Shown here: positions 16,819-43,202 of the stretch, in pieces
Layout of the letters: each line of letters begins with the position of its first letter
Position numbering within the stretch: position 1 is the first letter of the stretch
Origin: Hymenobacter yonginensis
GTDB taxonomy: Bacteria; Bacteroidota; Bacteroidia; Cytophagales; Hymenobacteraceae
Assembly: GCF_027625995.1 (NCBI RefSeq)
Contig: NZ_CP115397.1
Coordinates: forward strand, 62,001-126,000
Direction of reading: 5' to 3'
Length of the DNA: 64,000 nt
Notes under the pieces: generated by a model
What the model was told of the DNA's origin: nothing
What the model saw: only the letters and a program-made list of their open reading frames with translations
Database searches by the model: none
Translations under genes and position numbers: made by a program

Positions 16819-17604
16819 ATGAAACAAGGGCAACGCCTATGGACGCGGGATGAGCTGCTGCTGGCAATCAACCTGTACTGCAAGCTGCCTTTCGGACAGC
16901 TGCACAAAGATAATCCCGCTATTATTCAACTGGCGGGACTGCTGGGGCGCACGCCCAGTTCAGTGGCCTTGAAGCTGGTGAACTTCGCCAGCCTGGACCC
17001 GAGCCTGGATCGGGCGGGCATGAGCAACGCCAGCCACTTGGACCGGCAGGTGTGGGCAGAGTTCTACGCCGACTGGGGTGGGCGGGCGCTGGAAAGCGAG
17101 CAGCGGCTGGCCGAAGCGCAGCACCTGACGCTGGAAGAAGTGGCGGCGGAGTACGAGCCGCTGCCGCCGGTACCGGTGGGCCGGGTGCGGGAGCAGCTGG
17201 TGCAGGTGCGGGTGAATCAGCAGTTTTTCCGGCGCACGGTGCTGGCGGCCTATGATAATACGTGCTGCGTAACGGGGCTGCGGCAGCCGGCGCTGCTGGT
17301 GGCGGGCCACATCCGGCCTTGGGCAGTGGACGAGGCCAACCGGCTAAATCCGCGAAACGGTCTGGCCTTGAATGCCCTGCACGACCGGGCTTTTGAGCTG
17401 GGGCTGTTCACGATTCGGCCCGAGGATTACGTGATTGAGGTGGCGCCGGCGGTGCGGGCGGGTAACCGGCCCGATGCCCAGGCGGCCGGCGGGCTGCTGG
17501 GGCAGTACCATGGGCAGCCGTTACGGCTGCCGGCGCGGCGGCGGTTTCTGCCTGATCCGGATTTTTTGGACTGGCACCGGGCAAAGTGGCGCAAAGTGGC
17601 ATGA
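16819..17604 (+). CDS. HNH endonuclease
   Basis: A 261-residue protein. Residues 5-60 carry a conserved DNA-contact region (WTRDELLLAINLYCKLPFGQ, then LLGRTPSSVALKLVNFASLDPS), seen in a widespread group of predicted restriction HNH proteins. The C-terminal nuclease reads CCVTGL, then VAGHIRPW and NPRNGLALNALHDRAFELG, with the His-Asn-His pattern intact (H in AGHI, N in NPRNG, H in LHDRAF). It should cut double-stranded DNA, possibly foreign or modified. It is monocistronic, with no methyltransferase beside it. Confidence 0.8.
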   Translation: MKQGQRLWTRDELLLAINLYCKLPFGQLHKDNPAIIQLAGLLGRTPSSVALKLVNFASLDPSLDRAGMSNASHLDRQVWAEFYADWGGRALESEQRLAEAQHLTLEEVAAEYEPLPPVPVGRVREQLVQVRVNQQFFRRTVLAAYDNTCCVTGLRQPALLVAGHIRPWAVDEANRLNPRNGLALNALHDRAFELGLFTIRPEDYVIEVAPAVRAGNRPDAQAAGGLLGQYHGQPLRLPARRRFLPDPDFLDWHRAKWRKVA

Positions 17605-17903: not shown

Positions 17904-20798
17904 TTACGCGTGTTGGACAGGGTCGTGGGAGCGGATCCACTCCCGGTAATCGCAGCCGAAGGTATAATTGGTGCAGCCGTAGAAGGCCCACTGCTTGCCG
18001 TTGGTCGTGCCACTGCGTTTCACCATACCGGCTGTAATGCACACCGGACATTTTTTGGAGCTTAGCTGGGTGCTTTTGCCTTCCAGCTCCAGGATGAACT
18101 TGGACTTGGCGGCCGGGTCGGTGATGAGCACAACGTGCTCTTTGGCCCGGGTGAGGGCCACGTAGAATAGCCGGCGCTCCTCGCTGTTTTCAAACTGATC
18201 GGCTTCGCTCAGCAGCAGGCTCAGCACCGGGTCGTCGGACATTTCCGAGGGGAAGCCGAACCGGCCGGCGTTGCAGTTGAGCACCAGGACGATATCCGCT
18301 TCCAGGCCCTTGGACTTGTGGACGGTGAGGAAGGGGATGCGCAGGGTAACGGGCTGGCCCTGGCCGTCGTGGTAGGCGTAGTGGATGGTGTCGTCGGCGT
18401 CGATGTGGAAGGGGCCGCCGGCGTTGCGGAGGCGCCGCAGGTCGAAGGAGTAGCGACCCAGCACGAGGATTTCCTTGCGGGCGATATCCGGCGTGGTGGC
18501 AATGAGCTCGTTGAGCACCTGCTGGAGCACAGCGGTGTCGTTCTGCTCCTCTGACTGGCCGTAGACGATGCGGTAGGTGGTCTGCTTGCCGGCGCTGCCG
18601 CTTTTTAGGGCCTTGGACACCTGGCTGGGGTTGCGCATGATGAACTGCGACGATTCCGTGATGAGGGGCTCGTGGAAGCGGTAGGTCCGTTCAATCTTGG
18701 ACTGGAGCGTGAACCCGAAATAGCGGCTGAAGTCTTTGAACAGGGAAAGGTCGCTGCCAGCAAAGCGGTAAATGGACTGCCAGTCGTCGCCCACGCAGAA
18801 AAGCCGGCAGTGCGGATTCTGGTCTTTGAGGGCGCGGATCAGCTGGTAGCGGCTCTGTGAAAGGTCCTGGAACTCGTCGATGATGATGTAATCGAAGCGG
18901 TGCTGGTAGGCGCCCGAGCGGACGTGGGAGGTGGCCAGGCTGATCAGGTCGCTGAAGTCAATCTCCCGGCGGGTGGCCAGCTCCTGCTGGTAGCGGGTGT
19001 ACAGGGGCGCTACCAGGTCCAGAAACAGCAGGTTGCGCTGCTGGACCCGCGCCGGGGTGCCCTCGTTTTTCCGGCGCACGTCCTCTAGGGAGTCGTTGTT
19101 GGACTTCATCAGGGTGATGAAGGTTTGCAGCAGCGTCTGGAAGCTGGTCACCTCGTAGGTGGCGGCTTGGGAGATGATGGCCCAGATTTCGGCGGGCGTT
19201 TTGGGGCGCAGCACGATGCCGTGTCGGGTCAGATTGGCAGTCAGATTATCGAAGAGTGAGTCCTCTTGCATCTCGTAGCTGAAGGTTTCTACCAGCGCCG
19301 TGCCGTACTGCCGGCTGGTTTGCCGGGCCCATTCGATTTTGCGCCAATAGATGGCGCGGGCTTCCTCCAGTGACTGGCCGGGCTTGGCGAAGAAGGCCGG
19401 CACGTTGCCGTCCCGGTCAACGCCGAAATGCTCGAGATACACCCGGACGTCGCCCTGGGTGATGGTGAAATCGGGCTTCCACTGGGCGTGGTCCGGAGAG
19501 GCAGTATCGTACTCGTAGGGGTACTCATACTGGTACTCCACGCCGTGGAAAAGCAGGAAGTTGGCAATGCGGCACTCCTCCACGCTTTTCACGATTTCCT
19601 GCCGGTAGGTCTTCTTGCCCTGGCGGCTGCCTTCCAGGCGCTTGTACGAGCGGAAGTTGTTGTCCTTGAGGAACTGGATGTACTCGCCCTGGTTCTGAAA
19701 CTCGGCGGCGGGCTTGGCCGGCTTGAGGTGGTGGACGAAATACGTGGTGACTTTCTCGGCGTAGGCCGGATCGAGCATGAGCTGCTGGAAGGCCGCCAGG
19801 ATAAACCGGCCGAACTGGCTTTCGTCGTAGAGGGAAGGCTGCTTACCCTGCACGGCGCCGATGATGTCTTTGCCGAACTTGTGGAAGGTGCGCGGCTGCA
19901 GCCCCTCGATGCTGATACGGGCGGAAAGGGTGGCGGCTGACTTATTGGTGAAGGAGATGAGCAGGATGTTGTCCGGGCTGGTGCCGTACCGGTCCATTAC
20001 GTACTGGACCTTGCCGATGATTGTGGTGGTTTTGCCGGAGCCCGCGCCGGCCACGACCAGGGAGTTATCCTCGTCGCTGACGATGGCCGTGCGCTGCTGC
20101 ACGTCGAGGCTGCGGCCCTCCACCTGGCTGAAGAGGTGGTCGTACTTCACCATTTCCTGGGGGATGAAGGCGGCGTTGTGGGCCAGTCGCAGGTCGTTGC
20201 CCTGCTGGTGGTAGCTAAGGAAGTCGTGGACGGCAGCTTTCTCCAGCGCGGTCAGGTTGCTGCGCTGGTACCCGGCCTGACTGATCGTGGTGTACAGGTG
20301 GTAGTACCGGGTCTGCCAGGTGGTGAGCTGATAGTTGCTGAAATAGCCGGCTGTAGGGGCCGTGTGGACTTTGAACGCTTGGGCCGCGGGCTCCATTTCC
20401 ACCAGCCACATCCGCAGCTGGGTGGTGAGCTCGTTACGCGTACTCGCGGCCGCGTGCCGCCGGTAGCCCAGAAACCCAACCAGCAACACCAGCATGCCCC
20501 CTATGGCATAGCCCAGTAAGGGGGGCTGCTCGGCGGTAGCATGGACGCTGTCGCAGCTTGCCAGGCGGCAGGCCCGACGGCCCAGCTTGCGCGCGGCGGC
20601 AGCTGTGGTTTCGGTTAACGAAGTGGAGCAGTTGTTGAGCCCGGTGCAGTCGCTGTTCAGATGGAATACCTTGCTGCGGTTACCATCGCAGAGGTAGACG
20701 GTGGTTGTCTTGGTGAGGGTAGTGCCGGTGGCCTGAACCAGAGCCGGTGGCACGGGAGTGCTCAGGAGCAGCGCCACTCCCAGGATAATAGAACGCAT
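17904..20798 (-). CDS. membrane-anchored UvrD/HelD-like SF1 helicase with exported Cys-rich domain
   Basis: A 964-residue protein of unusual layout. Residues 1-23 are a signal-like segment. Residues 34-85 form a six-cysteine domain of the type found in small exported Bacteroidota proteins (VYLCDGNRSKVFHLNSDC, then LNNC, ACRLASC). A membrane helix follows at 94-112 (LLGYAIGGMLVLLVGFLGY), then a linker. The SF1A helicase core starts with Walker A AGAGSGKT at 250-257; Walker B IIIDEFQD, GDDWQSIYRF, TVHKSKGLEADIV and VALTRAKEHV follow. A nuclease-like insertion (KPDFTI, then VYLEHFGV) sits between helicase motifs. A topoisomerase-type zinc ribbon (CPVC, then CTNYTFGC) ends the protein. The layout implies sensing outside the membrane coupled to DNA unwinding inside. 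Confidence 0.85.
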   Translation of the reverse strand: MRSIILGVALLLSTPVPPALVQATGTTLTKTTTVYLCDGNRSKVFHLNSDCTGLNNCSTSLTETTAAAARKLGRRACRLASCDSVHATAEQPPLLGYAIGGMLVLLVGFLGYRRHAAASTRNELTTQLRMWLVEMEPAAQAFKVHTAPTAGYFSNYQLTTWQTRYYHLYTTISQAGYQRSNLTALEKAAVHDFLSYHQQGNDLRLAHNAAFIPQEMVKYDHLFSQVEGRSLDVQQRTAIVSDEDNSLVVAGAGSGKTTTIIGKVQYVMDRYGTSPDNILLISFTNKSAATLSARISIEGLQPRTFHKFGKDIIGAVQGKQPSLYDESQFGRFILAAFQQLMLDPAYAEKVTTYFVHHLKPAKPAAEFQNQGEYIQFLKDNNFRSYKRLEGSRQGKKTYRQEIVKSVEECRIANFLLFHGVEYQYEYPYEYDTASPDHAQWKPDFTITQGDVRVYLEHFGVDRDGNVPAFFAKPGQSLEEARAIYWRKIEWARQTSRQYGTALVETFSYEMQEDSLFDNLTANLTRHGIVLRPKTPAEIWAIISQAATYEVTSFQTLLQTFITLMKSNNDSLEDVRRKNEGTPARVQQRNLLFLDLVAPLYTRYQQELATRREIDFSDLISLATSHVRSGAYQHRFDYIIIDEFQDLSQSRYQLIRALKDQNPHCRLFCVGDDWQSIYRFAGSDLSLFKDFSRYFGFTLQSKIERTYRFHEPLITESSQFIMRNPSQVSKALKSGSAGKQTTYRIVYGQSEEQNDTAVLQQVLNELIATTPDIARKEILVLGRYSFDLRRLRNAGGPFHIDADDTIHYAYHDGQGQPVTLRIPFLTVHKSKGLEADIVLVLNCNAGRFGFPSEMSDDPVLSLLLSEADQFENSEERRLFYVALTRAKEHVVLITDPAAKSKFILELEGKSTQLSSKKCPVCITAGMVKRSGTTNGKQWAFYGCTNYTFGCDYREWIRSHDPVQHA

Positions 20799-21436: not shown

Positions 21437-22888
21437 TCATTTGTATATTATTCCAAGTATATTTTCTACTACTAAGACAAAGCAGTCATATTCTTTATTG
21501 TTGTGTTTCCAACTGCATACCGTAGACCATTTTTGCCCTGCATTAGGGCACCTAAGCGGGATTCCATATTTTAAAGGGCAGTCAAGGCGCTTATTTAGTA
21601 GAAGCTGTTTTATGATCGCATGGGCGGTTAATGTATCGAGCTTAAAGAAGAATTCTCCCAACGGCTTTTTGTCAGCTATAGAATAAAAAGTTGCGTCTTT
21701 ATATATTAAGTCAAGGAGATCCCAAATAGAATCACTTCTTATTATTTTGCTAAAGAAATGATAGGGATCATCACGTCTTGCTTTCAAAAGAGCAACATGC
21801 ATTCTAAATGCATACCCCATAAGAGTTTCATCTGATGTGGTCTTGTATATATTTTCTGCACGTTCATGTGCCATAAAAGCCATTTGCTCAGGTGGCGGGA
21901 TTTTCATTTTATCACAGATGTTGCTGTAGAACTGTTTAACATCATTGAAAGATTCAAAGCTACAATCTAGGGCTTCATTGCAAGCATTAAAGAAAATCAT
22001 TCCAGGATATTCATCTGCTATGCCATCTGTGTTATTATTCACTAGTGTATTGATATTAAAAAGTATAAAAGGATCATACATTAATGCTATATCTATGCAG
22101 ATCATTAAGGGTATTATAGAATTAAATTTTAGCATTCCTATTTTAGCGGCATATGCTATAAGGCTCGTGTATTCGGCTTCTTCAGGTACAATACCTAAGA
22201 TAAATAAAAGATCAACTTCTTGATTAAAAGCGTTTCCGATATTGTTTGCTTCTGCTAGCACAGCAAAAGCCTCCATTAGTATCGCTGCCGTTACGATTAC
22301 ATCTACGACCCTTCCTTTTTCGTAATATAGTAAGTGTGGTAAATATTTTGAGGTAATATTATTATTTAAATAAAGTGATATTCTATTTATATTATCTTCT
22401 GAAATAACTGTATTGTGAAATGGATTCCACAGCTCCAGCCATAAGATTGGAAGCTCATTATGAGTAATACTATGCGTTGTTTTTTTATGTATTGACAACT
22501 GGTCAATACATTCTAGGTAGAAGAGATAACGACTTAAATCTTCGTAATTAGATGTCTCTGATGCAAAATTGTTATTTATGACAGGGATTGATGTGCGTTT
22601 GCTTTTAGAAAGTCGATTTAAAGTAATTATAGTACTGCGAATACATCGTAAACCGAATGATGTTGATAGGTATTGCATTAAGTGCGCGTATTCATGTATA
22701 AAAGACATTGACTTTCCTAACATCTCAATAGACTCATGGGTATAAGGTTGGGCTATTGGATACCGCTGTAAAGCGTCTTCAAATTCATCGAATTCGCCAT
22801 CCAGGCCAATGGCATAACTAAATGGATGAAATACACCTCGTCTTTTTGAGCTAAGTCTTATGACTTCGAGGGCTTCAGTCTTATTCAT
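21437..22888 (-). CDS. predicted zinc metallopeptidase (HEYAH), partner of a nuclease
   Basis: A 483-residue cytosolic protein with the zincin motif HEYAH at residues 65-69 in MSFIHEYAHLMQYLSTSFGL. A glutamate-containing helix LMEAFAVLAEANN at about 205-215 could provide the third zinc ligand, as in gluzincins. The rest is predicted helical and has no family I recognise. A Cys-rich tail (CPLKYGIPLRC, then CSW) could bind metal. The start overlaps the stop of the upstream nuclease gene by 4 bp (ATGA), implying translational coupling. Base composition is far more AT-rich than the flanking helicase and ssp genes, which suggests separate acquisition. A protease tied to a nuclease suggests a defence module in which cleavage activates or releases the nuclease, but this is inference. 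Confidence 0.7.
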   Translation of the reverse strand: MNKTEALEVIRLSSKRRGVFHPFSYAIGLDGEFDEFEDALQRYPIAQPYTHESIEMLGKSMSFIHEYAHLMQYLSTSFGLRCIRSTIITLNRLSKSKRTSIPVINNNFASETSNYEDLSRYLFYLECIDQLSIHKKTTHSITHNELPILWLELWNPFHNTVISEDNINRISLYLNNNITSKYLPHLLYYEKGRVVDVIVTAAILMEAFAVLAEANNIGNAFNQEVDLLFILGIVPEEAEYTSLIAYAAKIGMLKFNSIIPLMICIDIALMYDPFILFNINTLVNNNTDGIADEYPGMIFFNACNEALDCSFESFNDVKQFYSNICDKMKIPPPEQMAFMAHERAENIYKTTSDETLMGYAFRMHVALLKARRDDPYHFFSKIIRSDSIWDLLDLIYKDATFYSIADKKPLGEFFFKLDTLTAHAIIKQLLLNKRLDCPLKYGIPLRCPNAGQKWSTVCSWKHNNKEYDCFVLVVENILGIIYK

Positions 22889-23403
22889 AGTAAAAGTAAG
22901 TTGTTGACTACACTATCTGCAGTTTGAATAATGCACTTATCATCAGAAATCAAAAAACCATACTCGATTATATTTTCATCGAAAAACATTCCATCAAAAA
23001 AAGTGTGTACGCTTTCCTCGCTATTACCGCTCCTTGCCAATACTACATCTAACGATTTATTCCTGCATACGACTAATGATATACCTTCACAGCTTGCTAT
23101 CTTAAAAGACCCTTTTTGAAAATTATTTGAAGAAACCATAATCCCCTTATTAGCTCCTATATCCCCAATTCTATATGCGAATGCCATGACCCTATCAAGA
23201 GATACAGCCGAAGTATATTCCTTGCACTCTCCAAGTAATAGAAAGTTGGTGCCTGCTATTTGTCCTTCAAATGAAAAATCAATTTGATGTGTATGGCCCG
23301 ATTTTTTGCCTAAATATTTTTTATTGTGGAAAGAATTAAATGATGGTAGTTGAGAAGAAAATAAATCATTTGCAATTTTTTCAAAATCTATGTGGCTTGA
23401 CAT
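22885..23403 (-). CDS. Mrr-like PD-(D/E)XK nuclease
   Basis: A 172-residue protein with the Mrr-type restriction endonuclease core: HTHQIDFSFEGQ (Asp 42), then LLLGECKEY with the catalytic E59-x-K61, and the helix VSLDRVMAFAYRIGDIGANK, then GIMVSSNNFQKGSFKIASCEG. The QKG...A block is the usual Mrr helix. It should cleave DNA. The C-terminal about 60 residues (SEESVHTFFDGMFFDEN...) do not belong to the nuclease fold and could be the target or partner surface for the downstream metallopeptidase. First gene of an AT-rich two-gene operon, starting 130 bp beyond the sspH stop codon. Confidence 0.8.
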   Translation of the reverse strand: MSSHIDFEKIANDLFSSQLPSFNSFHNKKYLGKKSGHTHQIDFSFEGQIAGTNFLLLGECKEYTSAVSLDRVMAFAYRIGDIGANKGIMVSSNNFQKGSFKIASCEGISLVVCRNKSLDVVLARSGNSEESVHTFFDGMFFDENIIEYGFLISDDKCIIQTADSVVNNLLLL

Positions 23404-23532
23404 ATATGTGTATTATTGTTTTTATATTTTTTTTGGTAAAAAACATGTTATACTTGTGAGCAGCTTAGTGTGCGATTTTGATCAAAATTGACGAAAAGCA
23501 GACTATATCTCATAAGTAATTGCCAGTTCAAA

Positions 23533-39083: not shown

Positions 39084-40184
39084 CTATGTAATACCGCGGT
39101 ACACGAAGGGATAAGAAAACCCTAGGTTTTGCGCAATCTGAAGCTGCGGTGCTAGTTGCCCGTGTAAATAATCGCGGAAGCTGGAATAGGACAGCTCACG
39201 TAACGCCGCGATATCCCGGGCGAACAACAAGTGGTAGTCTTCCAGCAGCGCATAGTGCTCCTGATCAGCGTGGAACTGAAACGCGCTGTATTGCAGGGCG
39301 GCGAAGGGCTCGAAATACTGCGGAAAGGACGGTAACCAATCGTTCTTGGTTGAGTTAACCGTTTTGGGGGTTGGAATGATATTCCACAGCTGATCGTGCG
39401 CCACGAACGACCAGGGAAGAAAATGGTCTAGGCTTAGGCTCTTAAGGATGATGGGTTGTCCGGAATAGATGCACGTGAGTGCTGGGTGGGCCGTTAGATA
39501 GTGCTTCCAAAAGTGGCTAGCGGTCTTTAAATCTCGCTGGCTGGGCTTGTCTAGTTTTTCGGTTAAGCCGGTAACGTTGGGATTGTTCTTCTGCAGGAAT
39601 CGAACCAAATGCCATTGGATAAAGCCCCGCAGAATAGCTTGGTGTTGCTGCAGGTATTCGATCCACTCTTCGTGCAGCACCAAGTCTTTGCCATCAAACC
39701 GGTAAGGGGCCCGATTGCCAGCGTTTGCAAGGGCGATAATGAGCGCGTTTACCTTCGGGTCATGCAGGGCCCGCGTTTCTTCGGCGAACATGGGCCGAAT
39801 AAAGCGGTAGGGTACCCAGTTGGTGAGCTTGCGGACCCACGCTTGCAGCAGCTGCTGCTCAGCCGTGGGCATGGCCCGAAGCTGGGTAAACAAGGGGGGC
39901 GCCGTTGGGCTGTTATCGACGACTACGTGCTGCGTAATAAAAGCAGCGATTGGTTTAAAGGTGTCTCGGCGGCCGAAAGAGAGCTTAAAGTAATCCAGAG
40001 GGTACCACACGCTGCCCAGCATGCGCAGCGCCAAGTCGTGCATGGCTACGCGCGCGGTGCCCGTGTCTCGTAAGTGGTCCAGAATGGCGAGAAACCAGTA
40101 AAATTTGTAGGCGTTGGTCGTATCCGCAAACACAGCGGACAAGGCTGCGATGTTGAGACGAGAGCCAGAAGGCAGCTGTGTCAC
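39084..40184 (-). CDS. HNH endonuclease next to sspA
   Basis: A 366-residue protein with a compact HNH site in its second half: CIYSGQPIILKSLSLDHFLP, then WSFVAHDQLWN and NSTKNDWLP. The DH pair is D253-H254, with H263, N268, N277 and K280 as further candidate active residues. It resembles the HNH module of Cas9-like and McrA-like nucleases by the DHFLPWSF pattern. The N-terminal about 230 residues are helical with no recognised domain and may read DNA or the sulfur modification. It ends 27 bp from sspA, convergently. Starts with GTG. Role in the phosphorothioation system is inferred from position only. Confidence 0.75.
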   Translation of the reverse strand: MTQLPSGSRLNIAALSAVFADTTNAYKFYWFLAILDHLRDTGTARVAMHDLALRMLGSVWYPLDYFKLSFGRRDTFKPIAAFITQHVVVDNSPTAPPLFTQLRAMPTAEQQLLQAWVRKLTNWVPYRFIRPMFAEETRALHDPKVNALIIALANAGNRAPYRFDGKDLVLHEEWIEYLQQHQAILRGFIQWHLVRFLQKNNPNVTGLTEKLDKPSQRDLKTASHFWKHYLTAHPALTCIYSGQPIILKSLSLDHFLPWSFVAHDQLWNIIPTPKTVNSTKNDWLPSFPQYFEPFAALQYSAFQFHADQEHYALLEDYHLLFARDIAALRELSYSSFRDYLHGQLAPQLQIAQNLGFSYPFVYRGIT

Positions 40185-41175: not shown

Positions 41176-42354
41176 CTAGGGCATCACTAAGCGGTCGAGA
41201 TGACGGTACTTAAGTAGTAATTCAAGATAGCCGAATGCCGAGTTGAAGTAAGACCTCCGAACTCCCTCAACTAGTTCAAGGTCCTTACTACTGTTAAATG
41301 CTTCCGCAACATCTGCGGGGCTTGACGTTTTCAGGTCGGAATAAGACATGAGCCTTTCCAGCTCAAGAGAGGTCGGGGCTGTAAGCGAAAACAGCTTCAC
41401 TAGCTCACGGCAGTAACCGCTGCTTCTGGACTTTTTAACGGGAAAAACATAGTTGTAAGCGGATATCCCATCAATCTTACTGTAGTCCACTCTGGTAGAG
41501 GGGAATTTGATTCCTGCTACGCCTTTCGCAGCCGTTACATACTGGAGTAGCAACTGGGGAAGAATATACTCAGGCTTAAACGTGTCGCCGTCTGTCCTGG
41601 TCTTTATAGAGCAGGCAATACAAAGCGGGAAAACAGTCAGGTAACGCACAAGGAAGAAAAGGTGCTTACCACGAGTGGCACCGTCTCTAGGTGCCTCTAT
41701 ATCTGCTAGAAAGTCTTGTATCCGCTCAATCTTGACCACTTTCGCTGTATCCATGTTTTGGAAGCGGCTGAAGTACAAATTGTCTATTCTACTCTGTCTG
41801 GTCTCTTCCCAACACACATATACCGAATCACCCAGATAAAGCGCTGGTAAACCGGGAATGCTGTATCGACTGGTAGATACCCGGCCACGATTCTCAAAGG
41901 GATTGTGAAAAAGGTCTTCTCTAGTGAAGTGCTGTTCGCCAGGGTGGCGAGTGCGGGAGCGGTAGAAGGTGACTCCTTCAGGTAGGCTCTTAGCTGTTAA
42001 TAGATAAATGGCTTGAATATCGTCTAAGACATTTTTGAAAGTCTCAGCAGCCTGTATTACTCGGCCATTGTAATAGTGTTCTATCGTTTGAATTAAGCCA
42101 TTAGAGAGCGTGCAAATGGTTTTATGAAGGGGAGTATGCAGTATAGGTACGTTCATTTCAGACCCTTCGCCAAACGGCATTCCGTCTTCGGTCTCAATCA
42201 AGGGTCTGAGGACCTGGTTATAGTACGCGTTGTACTTGTTGAGTTGCTCTGCTAGATAGTTAGGGTAGTCAGCGTCAGAAAGTGCCTGGGCGCGGGGGAT
42301 CTCAAATTCACTGAAGTCTAAAGCAGCTCTGACTTGATCGTAACGTTCAGCCAA
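41176..42354 (-). CDS. RES-domain protein (NAD-degrading toxin family)
   Basis: A 392-residue protein. Residues about 130-330 show the RES core: FYRSRTR (R132), NPFENRGRVSTSRYSIPGLP, ALYLGDSVYVCWEETR (E183) and a long following helical part. RES toxins break NAD+ and are normally paired with a Xre-like antitoxin, but none is next to this gene. The N-terminal about 125 residues and C-terminal tail make it larger than classic RES toxins of about 150-230 residues, as in the longer stand-alone forms. It starts with a TTG; no ATG is available in frame upstream. Possible abortive-infection effector. Confidence 0.75.
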   Translation of the reverse strand: MAERYDQVRAALDFSEFEIPRAQALSDADYPNYLAEQLNKYNAYYNQVLRPLIETEDGMPFGEGSEMNVPILHTPLHKTICTLSNGLIQTIEHYYNGRVIQAAETFKNVLDDIQAIYLLTAKSLPEGVTFYRSRTRHPGEQHFTREDLFHNPFENRGRVSTSRYSIPGLPALYLGDSVYVCWEETRQSRIDNLYFSRFQNMDTAKVVKIERIQDFLADIEAPRDGATRGKHLFFLVRYLTVFPLCIACSIKTRTDGDTFKPEYILPQLLLQYVTAAKGVAGIKFPSTRVDYSKIDGISAYNYVFPVKKSRSSGYCRELVKLFSLTAPTSLELERLMSYSDLKTSSPADVAEAFNSSKDLELVEGVRRSYFNSAFGYLELLLKYRHLDRLVMP

Positions 42355-42588: not shown

Positions 42589-42993
42589 TCAAGTCAAGCA
42601 ACATCGATTATCAATTAGTTTAACGGTGTAACCCAAGCGAGAGGCAATTTCCTTCATCTTTTAAGAGGTTTTGAAAGCGTATTAGATTTCTTTACAATAC
42701 ATAGCGTTCTTGTCTCCCATAAGAAGCAGTTTACCAATAATACTTTGCAGCGTACTAAAATCTTCAGGTACGGTCGGGCCCTCGCTTCGTTTGACCTGGA
42801 TGAGCCAGTGTGTGTTCCCGCTATTGATGAACAATACATCAATGCCTCGGTCGCTAGGTCCGCCCATATGCTTCACCTCACAGTGAGTATAGCTTGCACT
42901 GATAATGTCAGCAACTAAGTGTTCGAGCCTATTAGAAGTTATACTATTCAAGTGGTGAGGGTAGCGAATGATGTATTTGGCGGGAGTGGGCAT
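42589..42993 (-). pseudogene. Mrr-like restriction nuclease, frameshifted
   Basis: The first part, from ATG 42993 (MPTPAKYIIRYPHHL), has LEHLVADIISASY, then RGIDVLFINSGNTHWLIQVKRSEG with the expected D and QxK catalytic residues. The frame breaks after KNAMYCKEI. The missing end is readable in another frame as KEIASRLGYTVKLIDNRC, matching the normal ending of this family (GYTVKLID). A frameshift near 42660-42690 therefore disables it. It sits directly upstream of the RES gene. Confidence 0.6.
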
Positions 42994-43202
42994 AATACAA
43001 TAGCTTATTGAATTCACTCTGTTTCACGCTCGTGACAAATAGCTTACCATTGGCCCAAATTATATCGGAACTTCATGATTCAGTGGACCTGTGTAAAGTT
43101 GATCCTGATATTAGATACCTGCATACACAGAAAGCCCCAAGATTTGGGCACAAGTGGGTAGCTCGGGAAGCAGGAAAGCTTCCCTGTCAATTGAGGTCAT
43201 AA

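What the first reader, a model, noticed from the sequence alone, without database searches (positions are those of the whole stretch)
21437..23403. Undescribed metallopeptidase/Mrr-like nuclease pair
An intact HEYAH zincin and an intact E-x-K nuclease are coupled by a 4-bp overlap in AT-rich DNA at the edge of a phosphorothioation locus. Protease plus nuclease pairs are a recurring defence theme (cleavage releases or activates the killer), but I do not know this combination.
Basis: partly seen in the sequence, partly recalled or inferred. Interest (0 to 1): 0.7.

Follow-up and report, generated by a model that had tools for sequence, protein, structure and literature searches.

The report
Coupled DNA-cutter and zinc-protease genes
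On a bacterial mobile element, beside a known virus-defence locus, sits a joined pair of genes for a DNA-cutting enzyme and a zinc protease; the protease belongs to a rare, unnamed protein family seen beside other defence genes in several genomes, so the pair is probably a small defence module, but nothing has been tested and the exact pairing was seen only once elsewhere.

Summary
A 172-aa Mrr-type nuclease (D42, E59-x-K61) and a 483-aa HEYAH protein share an ATGA overlap, in 34.5% GC DNA directly after SspH of an Ssp phosphorothioate locus on a mobile element. The nuclease is an ordinary Mrr_cat domain. The second protein belongs to a rare zincin family: 0 of 38 members match a Pfam peptidase, and a profile built without the window protein still finds it (6.8e-10). 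Beyond the HEYxH motif, which my search pattern imposed, 38 of 38 rows share a distal Glu (E206, presumed third zinc ligand) and nearly all share a four-cysteine tail. A model of a typical member is confident (pLDDT 92.7) yet has no Foldseek match in PDB. Defence- or toxin-type neighbours turned up at 12 different family loci (52 mapped, not all scanned). The exact pairing is rare: an Mrr-type gene lies directly upstream in 2 of 52 (window, Spirosoma plasmid). It is not a standard Ssp part (0 of 5 SspH relatives), and 12 of 42 family genes with sequence on both sides have no close co-directional neighbour. I read it as a separately acquired defence cassette whose protease probably controls or complements the nuclease. 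Defence is inferred; the mechanism is a guess.

The parts
22885..23403 (-). Mrr-type nuclease, 172 aa, first gene of the pair
   Evidence: Pfam Mrr_cat E 4.2e-6, above the gathering score; PADLOC and NCBIfam none
23278..23280 (-). nuclease D42 codon (catalytic Asp, by motif)
   Evidence: Asp in 7 of 7 aligned Mrr_cat proteins
23221..23229 (-). nuclease E59-C60-K61 codons (E-x-K)
   Evidence: Lys in 7 of 7 rows; Glu in 5 and Asp in 2 of 7 at position 59
22885..22888 (-). ATGA overlap: nuclease stop, zincin start
   Evidence: sequence; junction printed
21437..22888 (-). zincin of an undescribed family, 483 aa, second gene of the pair
   Evidence: held-out family profile E 6.8e-10; no match above a curated cut-off in Pfam or NCBIfam, none in PHROGs or PADLOC
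22653..22696 (-). HEYAHLMQYLSTSFG motif (zinc-binding H65, H69 and catalytic E66 inferred)
   Evidence: one pattern match in the window, none in 100 shuffles; the pattern was drawn with this sequence in hand
22271..22273 (-). E206 codon, presumed third zinc ligand
   Evidence: invariant in 38 of 38 family rows, not part of the search pattern
21482..21580 (-). C-terminal four-cysteine module C437-C447-C458-C469
   Evidence: C437, C447, C469 invariant in 37 of 37 rows, C458 in 90% or more
23404..23532 (.). 129-nt spacer to the SspH gene, 27.9% GC

Best explanation
The pair is a small mobile defence cassette, acquired independently of the Ssp operon it now follows. Gene 1 is a minimal Mrr-type DNase with a short tail. 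Gene 2 is a gluzincin-type protease: H65, H69 and E206 would hold the zinc, E66 would activate water, and the Cys4 tail would be a second, structural or sensing zinc site. The most likely working mode is that both proteins are made together, the protease is silent until infection or DNA stress is sensed, and its cleavage of one protein (the nuclease tail, a repressor, or a host or phage factor) lets the nuclease attack DNA. Shown here: the two genes, the coupling, the intact motifs, the family membership, and defence-type company of other family members. Inferred: zinc ligation, protease activity, a defence role. Guess: what is cleaved and in which order.
For: ATGA coupling and a shared low GC unlike both flanks. 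D-ExK present. Zincin family membership with E206 in 38 of 38 rows and a Cys tail, neither part of the search pattern; 3 members found by profile or tblastn rather than by the pattern also keep the Glu and have 4-5 cysteines in the last 75 residues (a fourth, L063, has a shortened frame and was not checked). Family genes next to defence or toxin genes: PDC-S68 helicase 14 nt upstream on Hymenobacter plasmid pHsw1, PDC-S53 helicase 79 nt upstream in L055, HEPN 5 nt upstream in L029, DarT in L014, Vsr in L024, GmrSD_N 55 nt downstream in L056. An Mrr_cat gene is directly upstream in Spirosoma, fused there to an M78 peptidase. Neighbours match more PADLOC models than same-contig controls, 107 against 53.
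Against: Mrr plus zincin lies side by side in only 2 of 52 mapped loci, and the two nucleases are not especially close (28.5% over 72% of the query). 12 of 42 loci with sequence on both sides have no co-directional ORF within 160 nt. The PADLOC tally is coarse: 25 of the matched models are shown, members cannot be counted apart, models are redundant, and the single most-hit models have more members in the control (4) than among the neighbours (2). Two neighbours that I count as defence- or nuclease-like had no PADLOC hit (L029 HEPN, L024 338 aa), and HEPN_Swt1 of L049 is just under its Pfam cut-off (27.1 against 27.5). Several neighbours are mobile-element genes, so shared islands could explain the company. 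GmrSD joined by an ATGA overlap to a distant zincin-like gene (L064) was not seen again in the 6 relatives looked at. No activity has been measured, and zinc geometry could not be checked.
Confidence: 0.4

Rival explanations
1. The zincin works alone, like the abortive-infection protease Lit (recalled): when triggered it cuts an essential host protein or a phage protein. The Mrr nuclease is an independent restriction enzyme that happens to be co-transcribed.
For: 12 of 42 family loci have no co-directional ORF within 160 nt, and the partners that do occur differ widely.
Against: ATGA coupling in the window and close helicase, HEPN and GmrSD partners elsewhere suggest joint function in at least some members.
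Confidence: 0.25
2. The protease restrains the nuclease: a toxin-antitoxin-like or regulatory pair in which the zincin degrades the nuclease or a repressor, like ImmA/IrrE (COG2856) peptidases that travel with XRE repressors and PIN or RelE toxins.
For: COG2856 zincins are described in such operons (PMC2701414, passages). In Spirosoma the Mrr nuclease upstream of the zincin is itself fused to an M78 peptidase, and the G811 relative has a 141-aa protein upstream that looks to me like an XRE-type regulator (by eye; no Pfam match at 0.01).
Against: I see no repressor gene in the window pair, and the window protein does not match Peptidase_M78.
Confidence: 0.15
3. Two unrelated low-GC genes in a defence island, adjacent by insertion; the zincin may do something other than defence.
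For: Exact pair rare (2 of 52); the window is an island with relaxase, Rep3, integrase, RES, HNH and another Mrr_cat ORF; some family genes sit by transposases, resolvases or integrases.
Against: The ATGA overlap and matching base composition of the two genes are unlike a random junction.
Confidence: 0.2

Closest known systems
Mrr_cat restriction endonucleases (PF04471)
   Same: Domain match above the gathering score; D and E-x-K present.
   Different: 172 aa; the five plasmid relatives aligned are 279 to 477 aa and carry a C-terminal part that is missing here.
COG2856 / ImmA-IrrE (Peptidase_M78) zincins with toxins or nucleases
   Same: Small-operon zincin beside a nucleic-acid-cutting enzyme on mobile elements (PMC2701414, passages); Spirosoma has both kinds of zincin side by side.
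   Different: No M78 match for the window protein; 483 aa, presumed third ligand about 140 residues downstream, Cys4 tail.
PDC-S53 and PDC-S68 candidate systems (PADLOC)
   Same: In two loci the RecD-like helicase of these candidates lies directly upstream of a family zincin.
   Different: The pHsw1 zincin itself has no PADLOC hit; the window pair has no such helicase directly upstream.
M48 metallopeptidase beside RM-DarTG in an EPEC island
   Same: Zincin gene at the edge of a defence island (PMC12255303, passages); family member L014 also neighbours a DarT gene.
   Different: 0 of 38 members here match a Pfam peptidase; that M48 is a Pfam family is recalled.
Lit (abortive-infection zinc protease, recalled)
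   Same: Intracellular HExxH protease in phage defence.
   Different: No Pfam peptidase match; stand-alone action not shown here.
SspABCD-SspFGH phosphorothioate defence
   Same: Directly adjacent in the window.
   Different: Neither gene is near SspH in 5 of 5 relatives inspected.

Membership tests
Mrr_cat nuclease (PF04471) | profile match above gathering score | tested here: met
   27.3 bits against 21
Mrr_cat nuclease (PF04471) | catalytic D and E-x-K | tested here: met
   D42, E59, K61
Mrr_cat nuclease (PF04471) | DNA cleavage | not testable with these tools
   needs protein
HEYxH zincin family (defined here, A2) | significant profile match with the protein held out | tested here: met
   E 6.8e-10; core profile alone 9.6e-7; three-member sub-group profile 1.2e-4
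HEYxH zincin family (defined here, A2) | distal Glu (E206) and C-terminal cysteines | tested here: met
   E206 38 of 38; C437, C447, C469 37 of 37
gluzincin peptidase | HExxH helix plus Glu third ligand in a second helix | tested here: inconclusive
   motif and helices present (helices 51-75 and 201-220 in a model of pLDDT 63); ligand geometry not readable; no Foldseek match with E <= 0.001 for either model in the PDB
Peptidase_M78 (ImmA/IrrE) | PF06114 match | tested here: not met
   no match for the window protein at E 1 and none among 38 members at 0.01
M48 or Lit-type peptidase | Pfam match | tested here: not met
   none among 38 members at 0.01; the only family listed is ER, one member, 0.0038
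Ssp phosphorothioate defence | pair conserved next to SspH | tested here: not met
   0 of 5 relatives by annotation and by profile over 273 ORFs
known anti-phage system with this pair | PADLOC match of either protein | tested here: not met
   0 families for both at 0.1
anti-phage defence system | protection against phage | not testable with these tools
   needs plating assays

The most novel reading that the evidence does not exclude
The zincin is a member of an undescribed class of defence proteases with a fold not yet in the PDB: one conserved protease scaffold with a Cys4 tail that is plugged into many defence operons (Mrr, HEPN, DarT, GmrSD, RecD-like helicases) and serves as their proteolytic trigger.
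Probability: 0.3. Interest if true: 0.75.

Novelty: new variant of a known kind. Interest (0 to 1): 0.5.

Why it matters
A protease family without a Pfam model, spread over several phyla and seen beside defence genes in a number of loci, would give an entry point to a set of defence operons whose trigger step is unknown. If the zincin is the shared trigger, one substrate hunt would inform several candidate systems at once, including PDC-S53 and PDC-S68. If it is a stand-alone killer it would extend the short list of phage-activated proteases.

Tried and rejected
Rejected: 'part of the Ssp system' (neither gene near SspH in 5 of 5 relatives). Rejected: 'ImmA/IrrE or M48 peptidase' (no Pfam match). 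Weakened: 'conserved two-gene system' (2 of 52 loci). The GmrSD-ATGA-zincin junction of L064 looked like a second example of the same design. No GmrSD is annotated beside the 4 plasmid relatives opened (8 records matched; their hypothetical neighbours were not scanned), and none is seen by eye beside the 2 further genome loci with a full gene (L118, L119; L120 matched over 38 residues only). So it stands as an isolated case.

Led nowhere: tblastn of the window zincin in plasmids and phages (none); viral-contig scans with the zincin, A1, P0002, the motif pattern and the nuclease (no relatives); PDB by sequence (for the zincin and the family profile only weak unrelated matches, best 0.0095 and 0.0087; for the nuclease none); Foldseek in PDB and BFVD (no match with E <= 0.001; the window model has pLDDT 63, so its empty result means little); promoter, terminator and repeat scans (promoter-like sites 15 against 11 in shuffles, terminators 1 against 2.2); tblastn in phages and blastn in E. 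coli of the Providencia member (none). Paper searches: nothing on this family in the titles and abstract starts listed (several lists were capped, e.g. 20 of 89, 20 of 72, 10 of 321 and 12 of 45); passages of five papers.

Limits of the survey: the family was collected with one exact DNA pattern, so the motif residues H, E, Y, H, Q, T and G are invariant by construction. From 52 pattern loci, L022, L042 (other HEYGH proteins, by eye) and L036 (spurious ORF) are not members; L007 (broken frame) and L052 (contig end) were not used; ORFs under 350 aa and identical copies were dropped (one search kept 39, Spirosoma included); L013 and L019 (cut by the end of the stretch) were left out of A2; L043, L046, L053 were left out of A4, A5 and the tree. 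L033 dropped out of the neighbour map because the script did not find its motif, leaving 52 loci, the window and five non-pattern loci included; some are near-copies (L009/L017, L015/L037, L049/L057). Genes were called by a simple longest-ORF script, so small overlaps and gaps are approximate. In the Mrr check the profile was built with the window and Spirosoma proteins in it; the only other hit among 445 neighbours is a weak one in L039, opposite strand, 914 nt away; blastp also linked an L013 ORF 4.3 kb away. The PADLOC control used 16 of the mapped loci, those with long contigs; L086 has sequence on one side only, and the control set holds more residues (45,179 against 31,656).

Full report
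OBSERVATION. The two ORFs are exactly as described: a 172-aa nuclease at 22885-23403 (-) and a 483-aa HEYAH protein at 21437-22888 (-). They share ATGA. Their GC is 33.5% and 34.8%, against 58.6% for SspH on one side and 61.5% for a UvrD-type helicase gene on the other; the spacer to SspH is 129 nt at 27.9% GC. The neighbours are SspC, SspD, SspF, SspG and SspH by PADLOC, with a DUF4007 protein and a cysteine desulfurase. A relaxase, a Rep3 replication protein and a phage-type integrase lie in the window, so this is a mobile element; no whole genome is held for it.

NUCLEASE. Pfam Mrr_cat matches at 27.3 bits, above its gathering score of 21. An alignment with the Spirosoma fusion protein and five plasmid proteins keeps D42 and K61 in 7 of 7 rows; position 59 is Glu in 5 and Asp in 2. 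The five plasmid proteins are 279 to 477 aa and carry a C-terminal part that the window protein lacks. tblastn in 72,556 plasmid records finds 48 records, none covering 80% of the query. By itself this is an ordinary Mrr-type domain.

ZINCIN: HOW THE FAMILY WAS FOUND. The window protein had no match in PHROGs or PADLOC, and only matches far below the cut-offs in Pfam (Rad4, 0.17) and NCBIfam (a disulfide isomerase family, 0.0013). It had no relatives in plasmids, phages or viral contigs. The nuclease search led to Spirosoma oryzicola plasmid NZ_CP089543, where an Mrr_cat-Peptidase_M78 fusion is followed by a 458-aa protein with HEYIHFIQ. A DNA pattern for HEYxHxxQxx[ST]T[ST]xG, shared by both proteins, matched 52 stretches in the genome collection. 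By eye, 49 of the 52 look like family members, two of those not usable.

ZINCIN: IS IT REALLY A FAMILY. In the 38-row alignment A2, the residues fixed by the pattern are invariant by construction. E206, Y240 and C437 are also invariant in 38 of 38 and were not in the pattern; in A4 C437, C447 and C469 are invariant in 37 of 37 and C458 in 90% or more. Three members found by profile or tblastn instead keep the Glu and have 4, 5 and 5 cysteines in the last 75 residues. A profile built without the window protein finds it at 6.8e-10, a profile of the core group alone at 9.6e-7, and a profile of L001, L012 and L014 at 1.2e-4; in the first, the best shuffle scores 0.69. A tree places it in a clade (support 100/97, midpoint root) with L001, L012, L014 and L066, but its branch is very long and the placement is unsure. 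None of the 38 members matches a Pfam peptidase at 0.01; one has a weak match to ER. A family profile finds only two weak, unrelated PDB chains (0.0087 and 0.063).

STRUCTURE. The window protein itself models poorly (pLDDT 63.3, pTM 0.76). A more typical member, L028, models well (pLDDT 92.7, pTM 0.92). Foldseek finds no match with E <= 0.001 for it in the PDB (best E 0.39) or in viral models (best 0.52). That hints at an unusual architecture but is no proof; the second aligner was not available and zinc geometry could not be measured.

HOW COMMON. Profile searches found matches in 2 of 204 genomes of the Hymenobacter family (A3, one of them a 115-aa frame), 4 of 395 genomes drawn from the phylum (A2, one of them the distant L064 type) and 6 of 390 of the order (A3, some of them genomes already in hand). 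These samples overlap and include the centre genome. It is rare, of the order of 1%. A scan of viral contigs, capped at 600 candidate stretches, gave five further members with 23-27% identity to L028.

COMPANY. Neighbours with a Pfam or PADLOC name: RecD-like PDC-S68, 14 nt upstream on Hymenobacter swuensis pHsw1, in a row with a DrmD-like helicase, a type III methyltransferase and a type III restriction subunit; PDC-S53, 79 nt upstream in L055; HEPN in L029, DarT in L014 and Vsr in L024; HEPN_Swt1 after L049 and its near-copy L057, 27.1 bits against a cut-off of 27.5; RloA- and RloB-type genes near L011, GmrSD_N after L056, MmeI beside L044 on the other strand; a type II methyltransferase after L043. 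With the window and Spirosoma that makes 12 different loci among 52 mapped. These are loci I chose to annotate after looking at the sequences, not a random sample. With Pfam I scanned 19 neighbours and the L064 zincin-like protein. Of the 19, six gave no family (L024's 338-aa protein, L027, L047, L050 and both of L066) and three gave mobile-element or unclear families (L040, L041, L059). With PADLOC I scanned nine neighbours; two had no hit (L029, L024) and L049 had a weak one.

CONTROL. PADLOC at 1e-10 was run on 115 neighbour proteins from 16 loci and on 116 proteins from 16 other places on the same contigs: 107 against 53 models matched. Only 25 models of each list are visible. For the neighbours these are DNA methyltransferases, AbiLi and AriA, each in 2 members; for the controls mostly kinase-like PD-T4-6 in 2 members and mads models in 2 to 4. 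The direction fits defence, but the models are redundant, the most-hit control models have more members, and the tally cannot be turned into a count of loci.

PARTNERS. In a map of 52 loci, 42 have at least 300 nt on both sides; 24 of the 42 have a co-directional upstream ORF within 160 nt and 12 have none on either side. Clustering of neighbours by blastp, and an Mrr profile over 445 neighbours, show an Mrr-type gene directly upstream only in the window and Spirosoma (other nuclease types would not be seen this way). Related helicases lie directly upstream in pHsw1 and L055. One distant zincin-like gene (L064) follows a GmrSD nuclease with the same ATGA junction, but six relatives looked at do not show that partner. 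So there is no single conserved partner.

LINK TO PHOSPHOROTHIOATION. Five SspH relatives on plasmids, the top four by rank plus a cyanobacterial one, were opened (334 records matched): none has the nuclease or the zincin by annotation, and neither profile hits any of the 273 ORFs in those stretches. In the passages I saw of the SspFGH paper (PMC8092258) the restriction part is a three-gene cassette. I take the adjacency as island clustering.

MECHANISM. Committed reading: a coupled module in which the zincin, silent until infection or DNA stress, cuts one protein and thereby lets the nuclease act. Shown: gene anatomy, intact motifs, family, company. Inferred: zinc site, proteolysis, defence. 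Guess: substrate and order. The strongest counterweight is that many family zincins have no co-directional partner, which fits a stand-alone protease (Lit-like, recalled) as well. A regulatory or antitoxin-like role is suggested by the ImmA/IrrE (COG2856) precedent (PMC2701414, passages) and by the M78 fusion in Spirosoma. An M48 metallopeptidase beside an RM-DarTG island in EPEC is a published parallel in layout only (PMC12255303, passages).

NOVELTY AND SCORE. Proteases beside nucleases or toxins are a known kind. I found no description of this zincin family or of its pairing with an Mrr nuclease in the libraries scanned or in the paper listings and passages seen (passages). Subscription papers and most preprints were not covered. 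I rate it a new variant of a known kind, interest 0.5.

Noticed in passing
window 42682-43017 (-): A 111-aa Mrr_cat ORF (Pfam 4.9e-6) lying between a RES-domain gene and a 781-aa AT-rich gene without a family; possibly a truncated nuclease.
   Followed up: no
window 41176-42354 (-): RES-domain protein (Pfam 3e-6), a toxin-type domain, in the same mobile element.
   Followed up: no
window 17904-20798 (-): 964-aa UvrD-type helicase with a weak, below-cut-off zinc-ribbon match at its C terminus and hits to GajB and DRT helicase models, next gene on the same strand 638 nt after the zincin.
   Followed up: no
window 39084-40184 (-) and 16819-17604 (+): Two HNH endonuclease genes flank the Ssp and pair region.
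   Followed up: no
L070 81-15251 (H. swuensis pHsw1): Row of DrmD-like SNF2 helicase, hypothetical, PDC-S68, zincin, type III methyltransferase and type III restriction subunit; looks like a compound defence operon.
   Followed up: partly
L045 8-kb locus (Ignavibacteriaceae): Two zincin-like genes facing each other; the second has HEYYHYLTN (weak A2 match).
   Followed up: no
L113 383-6221: Operon-like row of a possible PD-(D/E)XK protein (by eye), DEAD-type helicase (by eye), a 307-aa protein and a family zincin in a viral contig.
   Followed up: no
L121, L124 (Pantoea plasmids): Distant zincin-like genes (36.9% and 31.3% to the L064 protein) between hypothetical and annotated capsid genes of what look like phage-plasmids.
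   Followed up: no
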